DNA of 6,461 bases from JALXCG01 sp026991065 [NCBI: Gemmatimonadota bacterium]. GTDB lineage: Bacteria; GCA-2686955. The stretch lies in contig JALXCG010000322.1 in NCBI GenBank assembly GCA_026991065.1, forward strand, positions 1-6,461. Direction: 5' to 3'. Shown here piece by piece: positions 1 through 5,967 of the stretch. Under the pieces are notes generated by a model. The model saw nothing but the letters and a program-made list of their open reading frames with translations. It ran no database searches and was not told the origin of the DNA. Position numbers and translations under genes: made by a program. Every line of letters starts with the position of its first letter. Positions within the stretch are counted from its first letter, which is position 1.

Positions 1-646
1 CCAGTATCATTCCGCCCGGGGCCATGGCCGCCCACTGCAGCGACAGCGCTTGATCCGCCGACAGGCGACGCACCACCTCGAAAACCGGCAACTCCTCCTC
101 CATGGCCGCCAAAAGGGCGACCCGCGCTGGAGGTGAAAGCGCGTCGCGCAACCCCGCCGCAAACTCGATCCGAAACTCGGAGTCACCGACACCGAAACGC
201 GCTCCCCGCACGCTCTCCACCAGGGCTTCGGTCACGCGATCGACGGCCGGGAGCGTTGCACCCAATCCACCCGCCTCAAGGGCATCGAAGGAGGCATCGA
301 GCAGGTCGGTTGCCTCCAGGATTAGGCTCTGCAACGCGCTGTAACTGCCGCCTTCGCGGCGGGGAAGATCCTGTATCGCCTCTTCGAGAATGTGGCACAG
401 CTGAACCAGGTGATCCAATCGCGCGAATGCCACCAGAGACTTGATCGAATGAGCATCGCGAACTGCACCATTCAGTGCGTCCGCATCCTCTTTATTGAAT
501 ACCTGTTCGATATTTCGGACCCAGCCGGCAAAAAAAAGTCGCGTTTCTTCCAGAAAATCGGACAGTTCCTCTGCACTTACTCCGCCGTGCTCTTCACTGT
601 CGTCGAGCTGACCGGCTGGCCCCAGGCACGCTGTCGTATCGATCAT
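1..646 (-). CDS. CheA-like Hpt-domain protein, N-terminal part (runs off the left edge)
   Basis: The minus-strand frame starting at ATG 646-644 stays open to the window edge, giving about 215 residues with no stop. Residues about 25-95 look like a histidine phosphotransfer helix bundle: an acidic amphipathic first helix (EELSDFLEETRLFF), then DAHSIKSLVAFARLDHLVQLCHILEEAI. His66 is the likely phospho-acceptor and Lys69 the usual lysine three residues on; the glycine that normally follows is Ser70. Residues about 100-215 are acidic, Ala/Leu-rich and probably helical, resembling the region between Hpt and kinase domains in CheA/FrzE-type proteins. Any kinase, CheW-like or receiver domains would lie outside the window. 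In such proteins the histidine receives phosphate and passes it to a response regulator. The start codon overlaps the upstream STAS gene's stop as ATGA. It could instead be a stand-alone Hpt protein; the Hpt call is firm, the CheA call less so. Confidence 0.72.
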   Translation of the reverse strand, partial: MIDTTACLGPAGQLDDSEEHGGVSAEELSDFLEETRLFFAGWVRNIEQVFNKEDADALNGAVRDAHSIKSLVAFARLDHLVQLCHILEEAIQDLPRREGGSYSALQSLILEATDLLDASFDALEAGGLGATLPAVDRVTEALVESVRGARFGVGDSEFRIEFAAGLRDALSPPARVALLAAMEEELPVFEVVRRLSADQALSLQWAAMAPGGMIL

Positions 647-1038
647 GAGGTCTCATCTCCCGCCGAGAAACTCGCCACGGCACTCTTAATGGTGCGGAAA
701 AAACGAAATGAACGATCGCCCCCTACCAGGGCCAAGGCAAAGCGATGCCGCGCGCGCAACCGAGCCACCCGAATCCCCCCACCCGCCAAGTTGGACTCCG
801 CGGCGGCCCGCATCAGCATGGCGATGCCGGAGCCCGAAAGTTTGCGAACACGGTGCATATCCAGAACGATTCGGGTGTCGCCCGCGCTTAGCAGACGCTC
901 AATTCTGCTATGCAGGCGGATCGTCTCCACGCCGCCCACCTCGCGCCCAACGTCCAATACGACAACATCGCCGACCGCGGGCTCTTGCGCGGCCTCGAAG
1001 AGAATTCGCCGGATCTGAGGCAAGGAGTCTTGAGGCAT
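643..1038 (-). CDS. STAS-domain protein, anti-anti-sigma-factor-like
   Basis: From ATG 1038 the product is 131 residues and almost entirely one STAS domain. It runs from strand GDVVVLDV (residues 23-30) through RIVLDMHRV (56-64) and the helix-capping loop LSGSGIAML (67-75) to the terminal helix near 113-125. SpoIIAA-type proteins carry DSSG in that loop and a partner kinase phosphorylates the second serine. Here the motif reads SGSG, keeping the second serine (Ser70) but losing the aspartate and first serine. The product is cytoplasmic. Its stop overlaps the start of the Hpt/CheA-like gene by ATGA, so it probably works with that pathway rather than with a sigma factor. The start is uncertain. 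The frame stays open to TTG 1239, with ATG 1128 and GTG 1215 as alternatives; the GTG has AAGGA five bases ahead. I chose 1038 because it gives a normal STAS length, although its ribosome binding site is weak. Confidence 0.72.
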   Translation of the reverse strand: MPQDSLPQIRRILFEAAQEPAVGDVVVLDVGREVGGVETIRLHSRIERLLSAGDTRIVLDMHRVRKLSGSGIAMLMRAAAESNLAGGGIRVARLRARHRFALALVGGDRSFRFFRTIKSAVASFSAGDETS

Positions 1039-1255
1039 GGCCACCGTTCTTCGCGGTTCGGATGCACGACCTCTGCACGAGCCCGCCGTCAGCGGCGTGA
1101 GCTTGCGTGTGAAGCCGATTGCGGACATCCGCCAGCGCGAATCCGCGAGTCCTTGTACAGGATGCACAACCGTGCGACCGGTCACGGACTCTGCTGGCTG
1201 AATCGGGCGAAACACCACATTCCTTGAGAACTTAGTCAAAAAAGGAACGCCGACT
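1039..1255. other. Gap between the STAS and lipoprotein genes
   Basis: These 217 bases lie upstream of the chosen STAS start and downstream of the lipoprotein stop. The STAS frame is open across most of it, so part may encode an N-terminal extension. It holds a near-identical 12-base direct repeat (1060-1071 and 1160-1171). On the minus strand a run of six T follows the lipoprotein stop, but no convincing stem precedes it, so I do not call a terminator. No strong promoter is visible. Confidence 0.4.
1060..1171. repeat. 12-base direct repeat, copies 100 bases apart
   Basis: GGATGCACGACC (1060-1071) and GGATGCACAACC (1160-1171) differ at one base and start exactly 100 bases apart. The second copy overlaps a small inverted repeat, GCAC-N4-GTGC (1164-1175). 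They could be paired regulator sites ahead of the STAS/CheA-like genes or a chance match. Confidence 0.3.
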
Positions 1256-1834
1256 CTACTCCGCTGCCAGGTGAAACTCGAACTCCCCGGCGAAGCGCGA
1301 CATGCGCACCAGGTGGAAAGGGTGTGTCATCACCGACAGAGTGATCGTACCCGGTGCCGGCTTGGTTTCCACATATTCCACGCGGCGGCCGGCTGCGGTT
1401 TCCCGACAGGAGACAATCTCCACCCCATGGCCGCTCGACGAACGCGTGCCGGCGAAAACACCGACGACCAGGCTCGTGGCAAAATCGACTTCCGGCAGGG
1501 GCCGGGGAGGGGACTCGCCACGGGTATGTTCGGCCCACAGCGCGGCGAACGCCTGAGGATCCCGAATCACCACTCGGCGCGGCTCGTGGATGCCGCTCCG
1601 GCTCCCCCGCGCAATGCTCTCGAAGGCAATGGAACCGGTTTCGGGCGAGCCGCCGGGTTCCCCCCGGGAAGCGCACCCGGAAGAGAGGACACCGGCCAAC
1701 ACAAGCCCACTTAGCGCAGTCAACCCGGACCAACGGCCGGCGCCGAAGTGACGGCCTTGACGACCCCGGAGTGGCCGCGCCGAAGGTGCATCTCCGGACG
1801 CTCCACCGGTCCAGGGCAAGAAAGCTAGCTGCAT
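1256..1834 (-). CDS. Lipoprotein with a PrcB C-terminal domain
   Basis: The product is 192 residues. A hydrophobic stretch (about 38-50) leads to VLSSGC with Cys54, an acceptable lipobox although position -3 is Ser rather than Leu, so it is probably a lipid-anchored envelope protein. After a Gly/Ser/Pro-rich linker (55-80), residues about 81-190 match the PrcB_C pattern: a basic VVIRD strand, FAALWAEH (96-103), PEVDF (114-118), VVGVFAGTRSSSGHGVEI (123-140), and a PAPG turn followed by HPFHLV near the end. PrcB was named from a subunit of the Treponema denticola protease complex; the wider family is of unknown biochemistry and should not be assumed proteolytic. ATG 1834 has GAAAGG on the minus strand 11 bases upstream, but it leaves 53 residues before the cysteine, long for a signal peptide. 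A TTG at residue 38 is an alternative. The gene diverges from enolase across 87 bases. Confidence 0.78.
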   Translation of the reverse strand: MQLAFLPWTGGASGDAPSARPLRGRQGRHFGAGRWSGLTALSGLVLAGVLSSGCASRGEPGGSPETGSIAFESIARGSRSGIHEPRRVVIRDPQAFAALWAEHTRGESPPRPLPEVDFATSLVVGVFAGTRSSSGHGVEIVSCRETAAGRRVEYVETKPAPGTITLSVMTHPFHLVRMSRFAGEFEFHLAAE

Positions 1835-3214
<1,380 letters not shown>

Positions 3215-3229
3215 TCCAGGAAACCCGCC

Positions 3230-3598
3230 ATGCCCATTCCAGCCCCTTTCCCCGGCCAGAGATTCAAGCGCGGCCATGAGCCCGTTCTCATACAAAGCCG
3301 TTCACGTCTCTTCTGGCTCTGCCTGGGGCTCTTTTGGCTGCTCCTGGTCAGTCAGATGATCTGGGGGCACCATGGATTGCTGGCCTGGCGGAGCGCTGAA
3401 CGCGCGGTGGCGGAGCGCAGCGCAGCGATCCGCGCCGCTACCGCGCGCCTGGAGCAGTTGCGCAAGCGCAATGAGGCCATGCAAAACTCTCCGGAAGCCC
3501 AAGAGGAGGTGGCCAGGGAACTCTACGGCTATACCACGCCGGGAGCGATCGTCTTCGAGTTCGATGATGCCAAAGAGTGGTCGATTGAGGTGCGCTGA
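3230..3598 (+). CDS. ftsB: Cell-division protein FtsB / DivIC-like
   Basis: FtsB bridges FtsL and FtsQ in the divisome and helps activate septal peptidoglycan synthesis. The 122-residue product has the expected layout: a basic cytoplasmic N-terminus (1-26), one membrane segment (about 27-46, Leu/Trp-rich), a coiled coil (about 53-85) rich in Ala, Arg and Glu, then the family signature ELYGYTTPGAIVFEF (97-111). That signature corresponds to the ELGMVRPGE-like motif of FtsB/DivIC proteins. AGGAAA at 3218-3223 precedes ATG 3230 with normal spacing. An FtsB gene directly after enolase is a common bacterial arrangement and supports the call. The N-terminus is slightly longer than in E. coli FtsB (103 residues). 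DivIC and FtsB cannot be told apart from sequence alone, but the single membrane segment and eno linkage favour FtsB. Confidence 0.9.
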   Translation: MPIPAPFPGQRFKRGHEPVLIQSRSRLFWLCLGLFWLLLVSQMIWGHHGLLAWRSAERAVAERSAAIRAATARLEQLRKRNEAMQNSPEAQEEVARELYGYTTPGAIVFEFDDAKEWSIEVR

Positions 3599-3685
3599 TA
3601 GATTCTCTTGCAATGCGATTCCGCGCCCAGGGCACGGCCAAAGCAGAAGACCGCGCGCTGATGGTGGATCAAGGCCGAGTTTTGC

Positions 3686-3714
3686 TTGACACGAACCCCG
3701 GGATTCTGCATACT
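3686..3714 (+). promoter_or_regulatory. Sigma-70-type promoter of tRNA-Met
   Basis: A perfect -35 TTGACA (3686-3691) is followed by a 17-base spacer and CATACT (3709-3714). Transcription would begin near 3721, about seven bases before the mature tRNA. This is the clearest promoter in the window and gives the tRNA transcription independent of eno-ftsB. Confidence 0.8.
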
Positions 3715-3727
3715 GCGTTTTCTTCAC

Positions 3728-3804
<77 letters not shown>

Positions 3805-3813
3805 ACTTCCCGG

Positions 3814-3845
3814 AAAGGGCTCGAGATCGGCCTCGAGCCCTTTTC
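3814..3845 (+). terminator. Intrinsic terminator after tRNA-Met
   Basis: A 12-base-pair perfect stem, AAAGGGCTCGAG (3814-3825) against CTCGAGCCCTTT (3832-3843), encloses a six-base loop and ends in TTTT. It begins ten bases after the tRNA CCA end and should stop transcription before rpmB. Confidence 0.88.
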
Positions 3846-3897
3846 AGTGTCGAACTGAAGGCAAGCATTCACTGTCTGGTGAGTTCCCCCCTTCAGT
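3843..3897. repeat. Alternating TTCAGT / ACTGAA repeats upstream of rpmB
   Basis: TTCAGT (3843-3848) faces ACTGAA (3854-3859) across five bases. ACTGAAGG (3854-3861) is also the exact inverse of CCTTCAGT (3890-3897), which ends just before the candidate rpmB -10. The middle element can therefore pair with either flank, or the three may be protein-binding half-sites. Confidence 0.4.
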
Positions 3898-3905
3898 GGT
3901 ATGAT
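3877..3905 (+). promoter_or_regulatory. Candidate rpmB promoter
   Basis: TATGAT (3900-3905) is a good -10. The hexamer 17 bases upstream, TGGTGA (3877-3882), is a poor -35. A start near 3912 would leave a leader of about 43 bases. The terminator between the tRNA and rpmB makes a separate promoter necessary, which supports this site. Confidence 0.5.
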
Positions 3906-3919
3906 ATTGGTTTCCGAAG

Positions 3920-3934
3920 CTCCGATGGTCGGAG
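3920..3934 (+). promoter_or_regulatory. Small hairpin in the rpmB leader
   Basis: CTCCGA-TGG-TCGGAG forms a six-base-pair stem with a three-base loop. Its 3' arm includes a GGAGG-like stretch nine bases before the real AAGGAG, so the hairpin may hide a decoy binding site. A regulatory role is only a possibility. Confidence 0.3.
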
Positions 3935-3942
3935 GATTCGCC

Positions 3943-3948
3943 AAGGAG
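3943..3948 (+). promoter_or_regulatory. Ribosome binding site deciding the rpmB start
   Basis: AAGGAG lies six bases before ATG 3955. It shows that translation begins there and not at the in-frame ATGs at 3901 or 3925. Confidence 0.85.
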
Positions 3949-3954
3949 AAACCG

Positions 3955-4197
3955 ATGGCTCGCGTCTGTAGCATCACGGGCAAACGCCCCCTCGCTGGGA
4001 ACAACGTCTCCCACGCCCACAACAAGACTCGCCGGCGTCAGCTTCCCAATCTTCAGCGCAAACGCATCTACGTTCCGGAATTGGGTCGCTTCGTGAGGAT
4101 TCGTCTGTCTGCGCGTGCGCTGCGCACGGTTTCCCGCAAGGGGCTCCTGGCCGTCCTCCGTTCCGAAGGCCTGACTTTGCGCGACGTCGTCTGCTGA
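3955..4197 (+). CDS. rpmB: 50S ribosomal protein bL28
   Basis: bL28 is a small basic protein of the large ribosomal subunit. The 80-residue product opens with MARVCSITGKRPLAGNNVSHAHNK-type sequence, the standard bL28 N-terminus, followed by RRRQLPNLQRKRIY (26-39) and a conserved RFVRIRLSARALRTVSRKG stretch (44-62). Length is normal. It has a single cysteine (Cys5) with Thr8 where zinc-binding bL28 forms carry a second cysteine, so it belongs to the form without a zinc ribbon, as in E. coli. The start is fixed by AAGGAG and by homology. No rpmG follows, unlike the rpmB-rpmG pair of E. coli. The initiator tRNA lies just upstream but is separated by a terminator. Confidence 0.98.
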   Translation: MARVCSITGKRPLAGNNVSHAHNKTRRRQLPNLQRKRIYVPELGRFVRIRLSARALRTVSRKGLLAVLRSEGLTLRDVVC

Positions 4198-4302: not shown

Positions 4303-4434
4303 ATGCTCATGCGCTGTTCTTCCAGCTCACCCCGGACCCGAGAGAGCAGATGCCGCGCCACCTCGGCTCTGCCTTCTGCATGCCAGCGCACGACTGCCGT
4401 CACCTGGATGGCGGCGTCCCACGGCCCCCGCTTG

Positions 4435-5967
4435 ATGCTTCGACATTGGCGGAAGAGCGCTGTTTGGCTGCTACTTGGCGCGCTCACACTCCCCGCGACC
4501 GCTCGACCGCCGATCCAACCCAGCCGCGGTATTGACCTGCTGCTGCAGGCAACGCCGGCCGGGATTGAGATTGCAGCCTATCGCTCGCGCCACAACCCAC
4601 CCCGTGGCGTCGCGTCCCCCCCCATGGCCGTTGCCCCCGGCCTGCATCTGGAGGTGGTATCGACGGCCGGTTCGGTGATCGAGTGGGTCGCTCTGGGCGA
4701 CCCCCACCTGCTCCTTTTTGACGATCTGAGTGGCGCGCGGCCAAGGCTCGGAATCGAGGAGGTCGCGGAGCGCTGGCTGCGCATACCCCTGGCGATTCCG
4801 GCCGGCGCCACGCCGGAACTGCGCATCCGTGATCAGCGCGGAGAGATCTGGGACTCGGTCGCGCTGAGTGATTTGAGCGATTTGACCCCATCCGGCGACG
4901 GGGGCGCGAGGCGCGGCGGCGCGGCGGTTGAGCCGGTTCTCATCAACGGCGACTCCGCCCAGCGCCTGGATCTGCTCTTCATCGGCGACGGATATCGCGA
5001 AGCGGAGTGGCCGCTCTTTCGCGATCATGTGGCCACCTGCGTCACCGCCCTGCTGGGCGCGGAGCCTTTCGCCACCTACCCCACTGCGATCAACATCTGG
5101 CAGCTCCCGCTGCGCTCGGCGGAGTCGGGAGCCGATCACCCCTGCGACGGGATTCAGCGCCAGACACGCCTGGATGCCACCTATGACTGGCCGGCATGTC
5201 GCACGCGCATGATGAGCTACAACTACCTCAAGGCCTGGCTGATCGCCACCGCGGCGTTGCCGGAGTGGGACAATCTGATCGTCCTGGTCAATGATCCGGA
5301 GCGTGCCGGCGCCATGCCGCCTTTCGCGCCGGGTCCGGTCTACGGCGCTTACGATGATCTGCGCTATCTGACCATCCACGAGTGGGTCGGGCACGACCTG
5401 GCGGGGCTGATGGATGAGTACGATGCCACCGAGGATGTGGGGCCGATCGGCCTGCCCTATGCCCCGAACTGTTCGGCGTCCCGACTCTTCCCGCCGTGGC
5501 AACACTGGATCCGCGCCGGGGAGCCGGGAATGGGCACGTTCAGGAACTGTGCATTCAACAATCTCTATCGCCCCACGGCGGATGCGTGCATCATGCGGGA
5601 AAGCGACGTCTACGCTTTCGATCCGTTCTGCCGCGAGCGCGCCGTCAAAGGGCTCTTTAAGGTGGTGCGGCCGATTCTGGGCGCGGAGCCCGATCCCGGG
5701 GAGCCGCTGCTGCTCGGCCCGGGAGAGACGGTCGAGATCTGGGTGGAGACGCTCGAAGCGGTGGACCACAAACCGGTTTTCACCTGGTGGCTCGACGGCG
5801 AAAACGCGGGCGAGGGCTATTTACCCTGGTTCGAGCTGGATGCCGCGTCGCTGGATCCGGGAATCCACACGCTGGCGGTGAAGGTCCACGACCCGACGGC
5901 GATGGTGCTCAAGGATCGGCATCACCTTCTGGATGACGAACGCAGCTGGGAGGTGCGACGCTTCTGA
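4435..5967 (+). CDS. Secreted M64-family (IgA-peptidase-like) metallopeptidase
   Basis: From ATG 4435 the product is 510 residues. It opens with a classic signal peptide: MLRHWRK, hydrophobic AVWLLLGALTL, and probable cleavage after PATA. A beta-rich N-terminal domain is followed by the M64 core: INGD (170-173), LLFIGDGYREAEW (180-192), PFATYPTAINIW, SAESGADHPC, NLIVLVND, the zinc region HEWVGHDLAGLMDEY (315-329), YRP (378-380) and FCRERAV with Cys399. Residues about 420-510 look like an Ig-like C-terminal domain. M64 enzymes are zinc endopeptidases; the founding member cuts IgA, but environmental homologues have unknown substrates. The usual motif is HEFGH or HELGH, then DEY. Here one residue is inserted, giving HExxxH, so activity and metal binding are uncertain. 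In-frame ATGs at 4303 and 4309 follow a strong GAGGAG; they would add 42-44 Ser/Arg/Thr-rich residues ahead of the signal peptide. Family assignment is firm; the start is not. Confidence 0.88.
   Translation: MLRHWRKSAVWLLLGALTLPATARPPIQPSRGIDLLLQATPAGIEIAAYRSRHNPPRGVASPPMAVAPGLHLEVVSTAGSVIEWVALGDPHLLLFDDLSGARPRLGIEEVAERWLRIPLAIPAGATPELRIRDQRGEIWDSVALSDLSDLTPSGDGGARRGGAAVEPVLINGDSAQRLDLLFIGDGYREAEWPLFRDHVATCVTALLGAEPFATYPTAINIWQLPLRSAESGADHPCDGIQRQTRLDATYDWPACRTRMMSYNYLKAWLIATAALPEWDNLIVLVNDPERAGAMPPFAPGPVYGAYDDLRYLTIHEWVGHDLAGLMDEYDATEDVGPIGLPYAPNCSASRLFPPWQHWIRAGEPGMGTFRNCAFNNLYRPTADACIMRESDVYAFDPFCRERAVKGLFKVVRPILGAEPDPGEPLLLGPGETVEIWVETLEAVDHKPVFTWWLDGENAGEGYLPWFELDAASLDPGIHTLAVKVHDPTAMVLKDRHHLLDDERSWEVRRF

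What the first reader, a model, noticed from the sequence alone, without database searches (positions are those of the whole stretch)
5374..5421. M64-type peptidase with an expanded HExxxH zinc motif (HEWVGH)
The sequence shows CAC GAG TGG GTC GGG CAC in the correct frame, followed by DLAGLMDEY. M64 proteins normally read HEFGH or HELGH, then SxxGLADEY, so GH and everything after it align while one residue has been inserted between the catalytic Glu and the second His. All other family landmarks are intact on both sides, so a frameshift or decay is unlikely. HEXXGH is the established zinc motif of dipeptidyl peptidase III (family M49), where the helix accommodates the extra residue. The protein may therefore be an active variant with M49-like motif geometry, or an inactive, binding-only descendant. 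Whether M64 members with this motif are already known I cannot say.
Basis: partly seen in the sequence, partly recalled or inferred. Interest (0 to 1): 0.6.

Follow-up and report, generated by a model that had tools for sequence, protein, structure and literature searches.

The report
Zinc protease with stretched metal-binding motif
A probably secreted bacterial protein-cutting enzyme of a known family carries one extra amino acid inside the short motif that holds its catalytic zinc, and the same stretched motif recurs, otherwise intact, in scattered distant relatives, which suggests a working alternative way to build this active site.

Summary
The ORF ending at 5967 is an M64 peptidase (PF09471, E 1.9e-21) with HEWVGHDLAGLMDEY, one residue longer than the family's HExxHxxxGxxD. 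It is not a sequencing error: the only other genome of the phylum held has HEWIGHDLAGLMDEY, and between the two the catalytic domain is 75% identical, the flanking domains 36-42%, with dN far below dS. It is not unique either: HExxGH occurs in M64-like proteins of Bacteroidota, Patescibacteria, Woesearchaeota, one Clostridia genome and two IMG/VR contigs, as a minority in each sample read: 1 of 28, 4 of 79 and 9 of 22 loci. All 21 distinct HExxxH reads found by profile keep both His, Glu, the Asp and the Tyr. HExxxH rows are not one clade (AU p 0.007 and 0.014). A regular alpha helix cannot bring His i and i+5 to one zinc; some widened turns can, as reported for DPP III and TldD. Best reading: an active zinc peptidase with a bulged active-site helix. 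The 2025 family survey reports no such variant.

The parts
4435..5967 (+). M64-family peptidase gene (likely start ATG 4435; the open frame begins at 4303), stop included
   Evidence: ORF 4303-5967; PF09471 E 1.9e-21. Start 4435 is chosen by eye because a signal-peptide-like stretch follows; no program was run.
4435..4503 (+). Probable Sec signal peptide, residues 45-67 (MLRHWRK...LPATA)
   Evidence: Read from the sequence; inference, no prediction program.
4504..4935 (+). N-terminal domain, residues 68-211, no known family
   Evidence: 36% identical to the sister gene; its piece 4489-4899 has no Pfam match at E 0.1. Boundaries are mine.
4936..5667 (+). M64 catalytic domain, residues 212-455
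   Evidence: Pfam residues 215-408, phmmer residues 212-448/451 to 4df9 and 3p1v; 75% identical to the sister.
5377..5394 (+). Expanded zinc motif HEWVGH (H359, E360, H364)
   Evidence: gap in canonical relatives.
5413..5421 (+). D371 (third zinc ligand by homology), E372, Y373
   Evidence: roles from the IgAse structure, PMC12237041 (passages).
5587..5598 (+). Met-turn CIMR (C429-R432)
   Evidence: Met in 31 of 31 HExxxH tree rows.
5620..5631 (+). D440-P-F-C443: aligned with C-P-V-C of 4df9; with C429 and E372 a possible structural zinc site with Asp in place of one Cys
   Evidence: Alignment; site described for IgAse. Inference.
5668..5964 (+). C-terminal domain, residues 456-554, no known family
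   Evidence: 42% identical to the sister; piece 5683-5964 has no Pfam match at E 0.1.

Best explanation
It is a probably secreted M64-family (igalysin) zinc peptidase whose active-site helix has one residue more between the catalytic Glu and the second zinc-binding His, giving HExxxHxxxGxxDEY. The extra residue is taken up as a wide, roughly five-residue helical turn, so that H359, H364 and D371 still meet at one zinc and E360 still activates the water. Shown here: the sequence, the insertion, its conservation in the sister, its recurrence, and selection on the domain. Inferred: the bulge, zinc binding, secretion and activity.
For: M64 homology. Same insertion in the sister genome. Catalytic domain dN 0.20, dS 2.18 (near saturation), identity 75% against 36% and 42% in the flanks and 84% over residues 330-400. 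All 21 distinct HExxxH reads found by profile keep His, Glu, Gly, His, Asp at the same spacing, and Tyr; 12 of them are not genes found by the motif pattern. Met-turn Met in 31 of 31 HExxxH tree rows. Ideal-helix geometry: i,i+5 cannot share a zinc in a regular alpha helix, and 8 of 15 widened turns tried allow it. Precedents: DPP III helix with five residues per turn and similar coordination (PMC3268031, passages), TldD (PMC5810440, passages), TMCPs (PMC10499314, passages), and Caldithrix DPP III, where the shorter HEISH leaves the zinc site much the same (PMC5805324, passages).
Against: No structure could be predicted and no metal or activity was measured. In the geometry test 7 of 15 widened turns failed, and with 5 degrees of backbone noise 0 of 150 backbones closed at i,i+5 against 145 of 150 at i,i+4, so the insertion needs a specific distortion. 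The third ligand was not part of that test. Conservation could also mark a binding role.
Confidence: 0.78

Rival explanations
1. The insertion has destroyed the metal site; the protein is a catalytically dead, binding-only descendant of M64.
For: The spacing departs from the HEXXHXXXGXXD that the 2025 survey reports for its clusters (PMC12402451, section 7). A regular alpha helix cannot chelate with this spacing.
Against: A dead enzyme would be expected to lose ligands in some relatives; all 21 distinct HExxxH reads keep both His, Glu, Asp and Tyr. The one degenerate read, YEFSN, is of canonical length and lies in a frame with stops. Selection is strongest in the catalytic domain.
Confidence: 0.15
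2. The site holds metal, but with rearranged ligands (for example D365, next to H364, or E372 replacing a normal ligand), so the chemistry differs from that of M64.
For: The window pair has Asp directly after the second His (GHD), and the structural-zinc residues are altered (D440 for a Cys).
Against: The residue after the second His is not conserved in the other HExxxH rows, while H, H and D371 are; E372 is Arg in 4 of 21 HExxxH reads.
Confidence: 0.06
3. The extra codon is a sequencing or assembly error.
For: The genome is a fragmented draft: 902 contigs, 83.81% complete.
Against: The sister gene, with different synonymous codons, has the same insertion.
Confidence: 0.01

Closest known systems
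M64 / igalysin metzincins: Thomasclavelia ramosa IgAse (ThomasA), Bacteroides BF3526, PDB 4df9/9qdi and 3p1v
   Same: Homologous catalytic domain; catalytic Glu, Asp ligand, Tyr switch and Met-turn residues all present.
   Different: HExxxH in place of HExxH; Asp in place of one helix Cys of the structural zinc site. Substrate unknown; nothing here points to IgA.
M49 dipeptidyl peptidase III (HEXXGH)
   Same: Same motif spacing, Gly before the second His; its helix is described with five residues per turn (PMC3268031, passages).
   Different: Different family: third ligand is a Glu in EECRAE-type motif (PMC5805324, passages; PMC7804941); the window protein matches only M64 in Pfam. M49 also has the reverse change, HEXXGH to HEXXH.
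TldD (TldD/E protease)
   Same: HExxxH on a helix with a distorted turn that holds the extra residue (PMC5810440, passages).
   Different: Unrelated fold, third ligand is Cys, needs TldE.
TMCP / KIAA0895L tubulin carboxypeptidases
   Same: HExxxH motif in a working metallopeptidase (PMC10499314, passages).
   Different: Gluzincin clan, third ligand in an EEG motif.

Membership tests
M64 (PF09471, igalysin) | Sequence homology of the catalytic domain | tested here: met
   PF09471 77 bits against a cut-off of 26; 4df9 E 4.7e-13, 3p1v E 4.8e-10.
M64 (PF09471, igalysin) | Zinc motif HExxHxxxGxxD with exact spacing | tested here: not met
   HExxxHxxxGxxD: one residue more before the second His. The remaining spacing is kept. 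The strict motif claim fails; descent from M64 does not.
M64 (PF09471, igalysin) | Catalytic Glu, Asp ligand, Tyr after it, Met-turn | tested here: met
   E360, D371, Y373, CIMR 429-432.
M64 (PF09471, igalysin) | Structural zinc site: Glu after the Asp plus three Cys | tested here: inconclusive
   E372, C429, C443 present; Asp 440 aligned with the remaining Cys of 4df9. Metal not testable.
M64 (PF09471, igalysin) | Metzincin fold and bound catalytic zinc | not testable with these tools
M64 (PF09471, igalysin) | Cleaves IgA (property of IgAse, not of all members) | not tested
   Needs an assay; BF3526 is reported not to act on intact IgA (PMC12402451, abstract passage).
M49 (dipeptidyl peptidase III) | HEXXGH motif | tested here: met
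   HEWVGH.
M49 (dipeptidyl peptidase III) | Sequence homology to M49 | tested here: not met
   The only Pfam match at E up to 1 is PF09471; the only PDB matches at E up to 1 are M64 chains.

The most novel reading that the evidence does not exclude
Metzincin peptidases of the M64 family have switched their zinc motif between HExxH and HExxxH more than once while staying active, the mirror image of what M49 did, giving a natural series in which one helix bulge tunes the position of the catalytic Glu and the metal tolerance. This would be the first HExxxH metzincin described.
Probability: 0.6. Interest if true: 0.65.

Novelty: new variant of a known kind. Interest (0 to 1): 0.5.

Why it matters
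HExxH is the signature by which many zinc proteases are recognised, and the latest M64 survey reports only that spacing, apart from one cluster that lacks the residues. If these enzymes are active, signature searches and 'inactive homologue' calls built on HExxH miss a recurrent class. The family also holds natural relatives with and without the extra residue, so that the effect of a five-residue turn on metal choice and on the catalytic Glu, so far approached by changing DPP III and thermolysin (a reference title only), can be tested in natural enzymes.

Tried and rejected
Sequencing error: rejected, the sister gene has the same insertion. M49 membership: rejected. One HExxxH clade: rejected by the AU test on 95 rows (p 0.0068) and on 66 rows (p 0.0144); the 66 leave out 14 rows (long branches and the two IMG/VR rows; 5 HExxxH, 9 canonical) and 15 further canonical rows from the Bacteroidota sample, thinned for speed. 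Which HExxxH branch lies nearest the window is open: joining the window pair with the Bacteroidales HExxxH rows (p 0.147) or with the Gottesmanbacteria-type rows (p 0.0997) is not rejected. The trees are unrooted, so gain and loss cannot be told apart.

The search for related loci with the window protein found no relative in genome contigs, so a degenerate DNA pattern was used. Rows chosen by that pattern keep HE..GH, Gly, Leu/Phe, Asp, Glu and Tyr/Phe by construction; only profile-found rows are independent. NCBIfam gave no family for any of 24 rows. A whole-genome PF09471 search found no match at E 0.001 in the Woesearchaeota and Clostridia genomes G388 and G389 (7 of 9 genomes matched), so those two kinds are weak members. 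Gene neighbourhood gave no substrate hint: window neighbours are; in the sister a glycosyltransferase-like ORF and a protein-kinase-like ORF flank the gene (named by reading the translations, no search).

Paper searches for the variant: 'peptidase M64' or HEXXXH (21 papers, mostly seen as a listing), metzincin with HEXXXH (one paper, where HEXXXH is M49), igalysin (one paper), HEXXGH/M64/PF09471 combinations (4 papers), PF09471 (one paper). In what I saw none describes HExxxH in M64. One paper prints HExxGHxxGxxH for the M12B Reprolysin_4 domain (PMC10469887, passage); I take that for a slip for HExxHxxGxxH, from recall. The library lacks most subscription papers.

Full report
What is there. 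The + strand ORF 4303-5967 (554 aa) matches PF09471 Peptidase_M64 with E 1.9e-21 over residues 215-408, and no other Pfam family at E up to 1. The ATG at 4435 is the likelier start because the sequence from there reads like a Sec signal; that is my reading, not a prediction. The motif HEWVGHDLAGLMDEY lies at 5377-5421. phmmer aligns the protein to the solved M64 chains 4df9 (E 4.7e-13) and 3p1v (E 4.8e-10) with a one-residue gap inside the motif. The draft genome (902 contigs) has one M64 match. The flanking domains have no Pfam family at E 0.1.

The canonical family. For the IgA protease of Thomasclavelia ramosa the catalytic zinc ligands are H539, H543 and D550 in HExxHxxxGxxD; E551 with three Cys (606, 616, 619) binds a structural zinc, Y552 is a possible tyrosine switch and C606-I-M608-R is the Met-turn. 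The paper places the family, igalysins, within the metzincins and notes one residue more before the Gly than other metzincins have (PMC12237041, passages). A 2025 network survey of PF16217 and PF09471 describes 15 clusters and states that all proteins across clusters retain HEXXHXXXGXXD, with Asp changed to Glu in two clusters and the residues missing in a trypanosomatid cluster (PMC12402451, section 7 read; its supplementary figure not seen). The window protein keeps these catalytic residues but has HExxxH. Of the structural set it has E372, C429 and C443, and Asp 440 where 4df9 has its other helix Cys.

It is real and constrained. Two genomes of the phylum are held. The other, G001, encodes a protein 58% identical over residues 73-553 with HEWIGHDLAGLMDEY. 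In a pairwise alignment the catalytic domain is 75% identical over 243 codons (dN 0.20, dS 2.18), residues 330-400 around the motif 84% (70 codons), the N-terminal domain 36% (139 codons) and the C-terminal domain 42% (99 codons). dS is near saturation, so only the direction of the comparison matters.

It is a minority form that recurs. A degenerate pattern for HExxGHxxxG[LF]xDE[YF] found 21 loci in genome contigs and 2 in viral contigs. By record title the 21 are 14 Bacteroidota, 3 Patescibacteria (2 of them Gottesmanbacteria), 2 Woesearchaeota, 1 Clostridia and the window's sister; all 23 lie in open frames of at least 298 codons. With the window, 24 rows were aligned; 22 of 24 match PF09471 at E 0.01; a profile of the 24 finds 3p1v and 4df9 at E 1.4e-35 and 8.2e-35 and four IgA protease chains at E 1e-12 to 1e-14. 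The motif residues of these rows are conserved by construction of the pattern. Against: a whole-genome PF09471 search found no match at E 0.001 in the Woesearchaeota and Clostridia genomes.

The look that does not filter on the motif is by profile. A model of the 64 canonical tree rows was run over the loci that family or profile searches had brought in (L002-L008, L032-L054, L057-L128). It gave 85 distinct motif reads: 63 HExxH, 21 HExxxH and 1 degenerate. Of the 21, 9 repeat genes already found by the pattern and 12 do not. All 21 keep His, Glu, Gly, His, Asp at unchanged spacing after the second His, and Tyr; the Glu after the Asp is Arg in 4 rows of the Patescibacteria sample; the Gly of GxxD is not kept in several, as in several canonical rows. 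By sample: of 29 loci (26 of 386 genomes across the domain had a match), 28 are readable, some sharing a gene; 1 is HExxxH (the sister; the window itself not counted), 2 loci of one gene are degenerate, 25 are HExxH. In Bacteroidota (57 of 296 genomes with a match) 4 of 79 loci are HExxxH, all 4 in the centre genome, which had been chosen for having it; rows covering only the C-terminal part were not read. In the Patescibacteria class (20 of 280 genomes with a match) 9 of 22 loci are HExxxH, 3 of them already known. The 9 genomes had been picked because one search found HExxxH there, so their 13 HExxxH and 2 HExxH distinct reads say nothing about frequency. The Met-turn Met is present in 31 of 31 HExxxH tree rows and in 56 of the 57 canonical rows with a letter there (7 of 64 have a gap).

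Evolution. On a tree of 95 rows (31 HExxxH, 64 HExxH, insert column left out) the form needs 5 changes and starred branches force at least 3; holding HExxxH together is rejected (p 0.0068). On 66 rows (26 and 40) it needs 4 changes, at least 2 forced, and one clade is again rejected (p 0.0144). A mainly Bacteroidota HExxxH group stands as one side of a fully supported branch (20 rows; 18 rows). The window pair's nearest other rows by path are canonical, and so are its best blastp and phmmer matches after the sister: best canonical 95.5 and 82.4 bits, best HExxxH 79.7 and 56.8 bits. But the pair's place is loose: joining it with the Bacteroidales or the Gottesmanbacteria-type HExxxH rows is not rejected (p 0.147 and 0.0997), and the tool warned of long branches and of odd composition in the pair. 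So more than one switch is supported; number and direction are not.

How it may work. In an idealised alpha helix, two His at i and i+4 can share a zinc (best mismatch 0.07 A) and two at i and i+5 cannot (4.97 A). Of 15 widened-turn backbones tried for i,i+5, 7 closed to 0.03-0.29 A, 1 to 0.57 A, and 7 did not close under the 0.7 A limit, the three with the angles (-76,-41) among them. With random backbone noise of 5, 10, 15 and 20 degrees, 0, 1, 7 and 18 of 150 backbones chelated at i,i+5, against 145, 119, 77 and 54 of 150 at i,i+4. The extra residue thus needs a specific distortion, and such distortions exist. They are reported elsewhere: the DPP III helix has five residues per turn with similar metal coordination, its Glu is nearer the metal (3.2 against 4.8 A) and it is active with Cu(II), which the HExxH deletion form is not (PMC3268031, passages); TldD takes the extra residue within one distorted turn, as DPP does (PMC5810440, passages); [quoted passage not shown] TMCPs use HExxxH (PMC10499314, passages). 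I conclude that the window protein is most likely an active metallopeptidase with a bulged zinc helix: it works like DPP III in helix geometry, belongs by descent to M64, and fails the exact M64 spacing.

The substrate is unknown. 'Not in print' rests on the searches in an open-access library and on the survey statement.

Noticed in passing
L121, L123, L125, L128 (Patescibacteria sample): HExxxH M64-like reads with DRY in place of DEY: the Glu that binds the structural zinc in IgAse is Arg.
   Followed up: no
L113 (G836): HEFGHSFGLADEY: one residue fewer after the second His, which restores the general metzincin spacing HExxHxxGxxD.
   Followed up: no
L022 (Woesearchaeota record, ORF of 1434 aa): A second HExxxH-like motif, HENGGH...DEH, lies near the C-terminus of the same frame, so the protein may hold two such domains.
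   Followed up: no
L055, L056 (IMG/VR contigs): M64-like proteins with HEFLGH and a C-terminal DLNGDGRVD stretch that looks like a dockerin repeat (likeness from recall). Whether the contigs are truly viral was not checked.
   Followed up: no
L012/L020 (Bacteroidales bacterium CF, G386): One genome with four HExxxH M64 genes and one canonical one: a lineage-specific expansion.
   Followed up: partly
L044, L054 (G055): A degenerate M64 copy, YEFSN in place of HExxH, in a frame with stops; probably a pseudogene.
   Followed up: no
window 1922-4197: Ordinary neighbours upstream: enolase, DivIC/FtsB, tRNA-Met (3728-3804), ribosomal protein L28.
   Followed up: yes
window 2-1834, - strand: ORFs with an Hpt domain, a STAS domain and a PrcB_C domain.
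   Followed up: no
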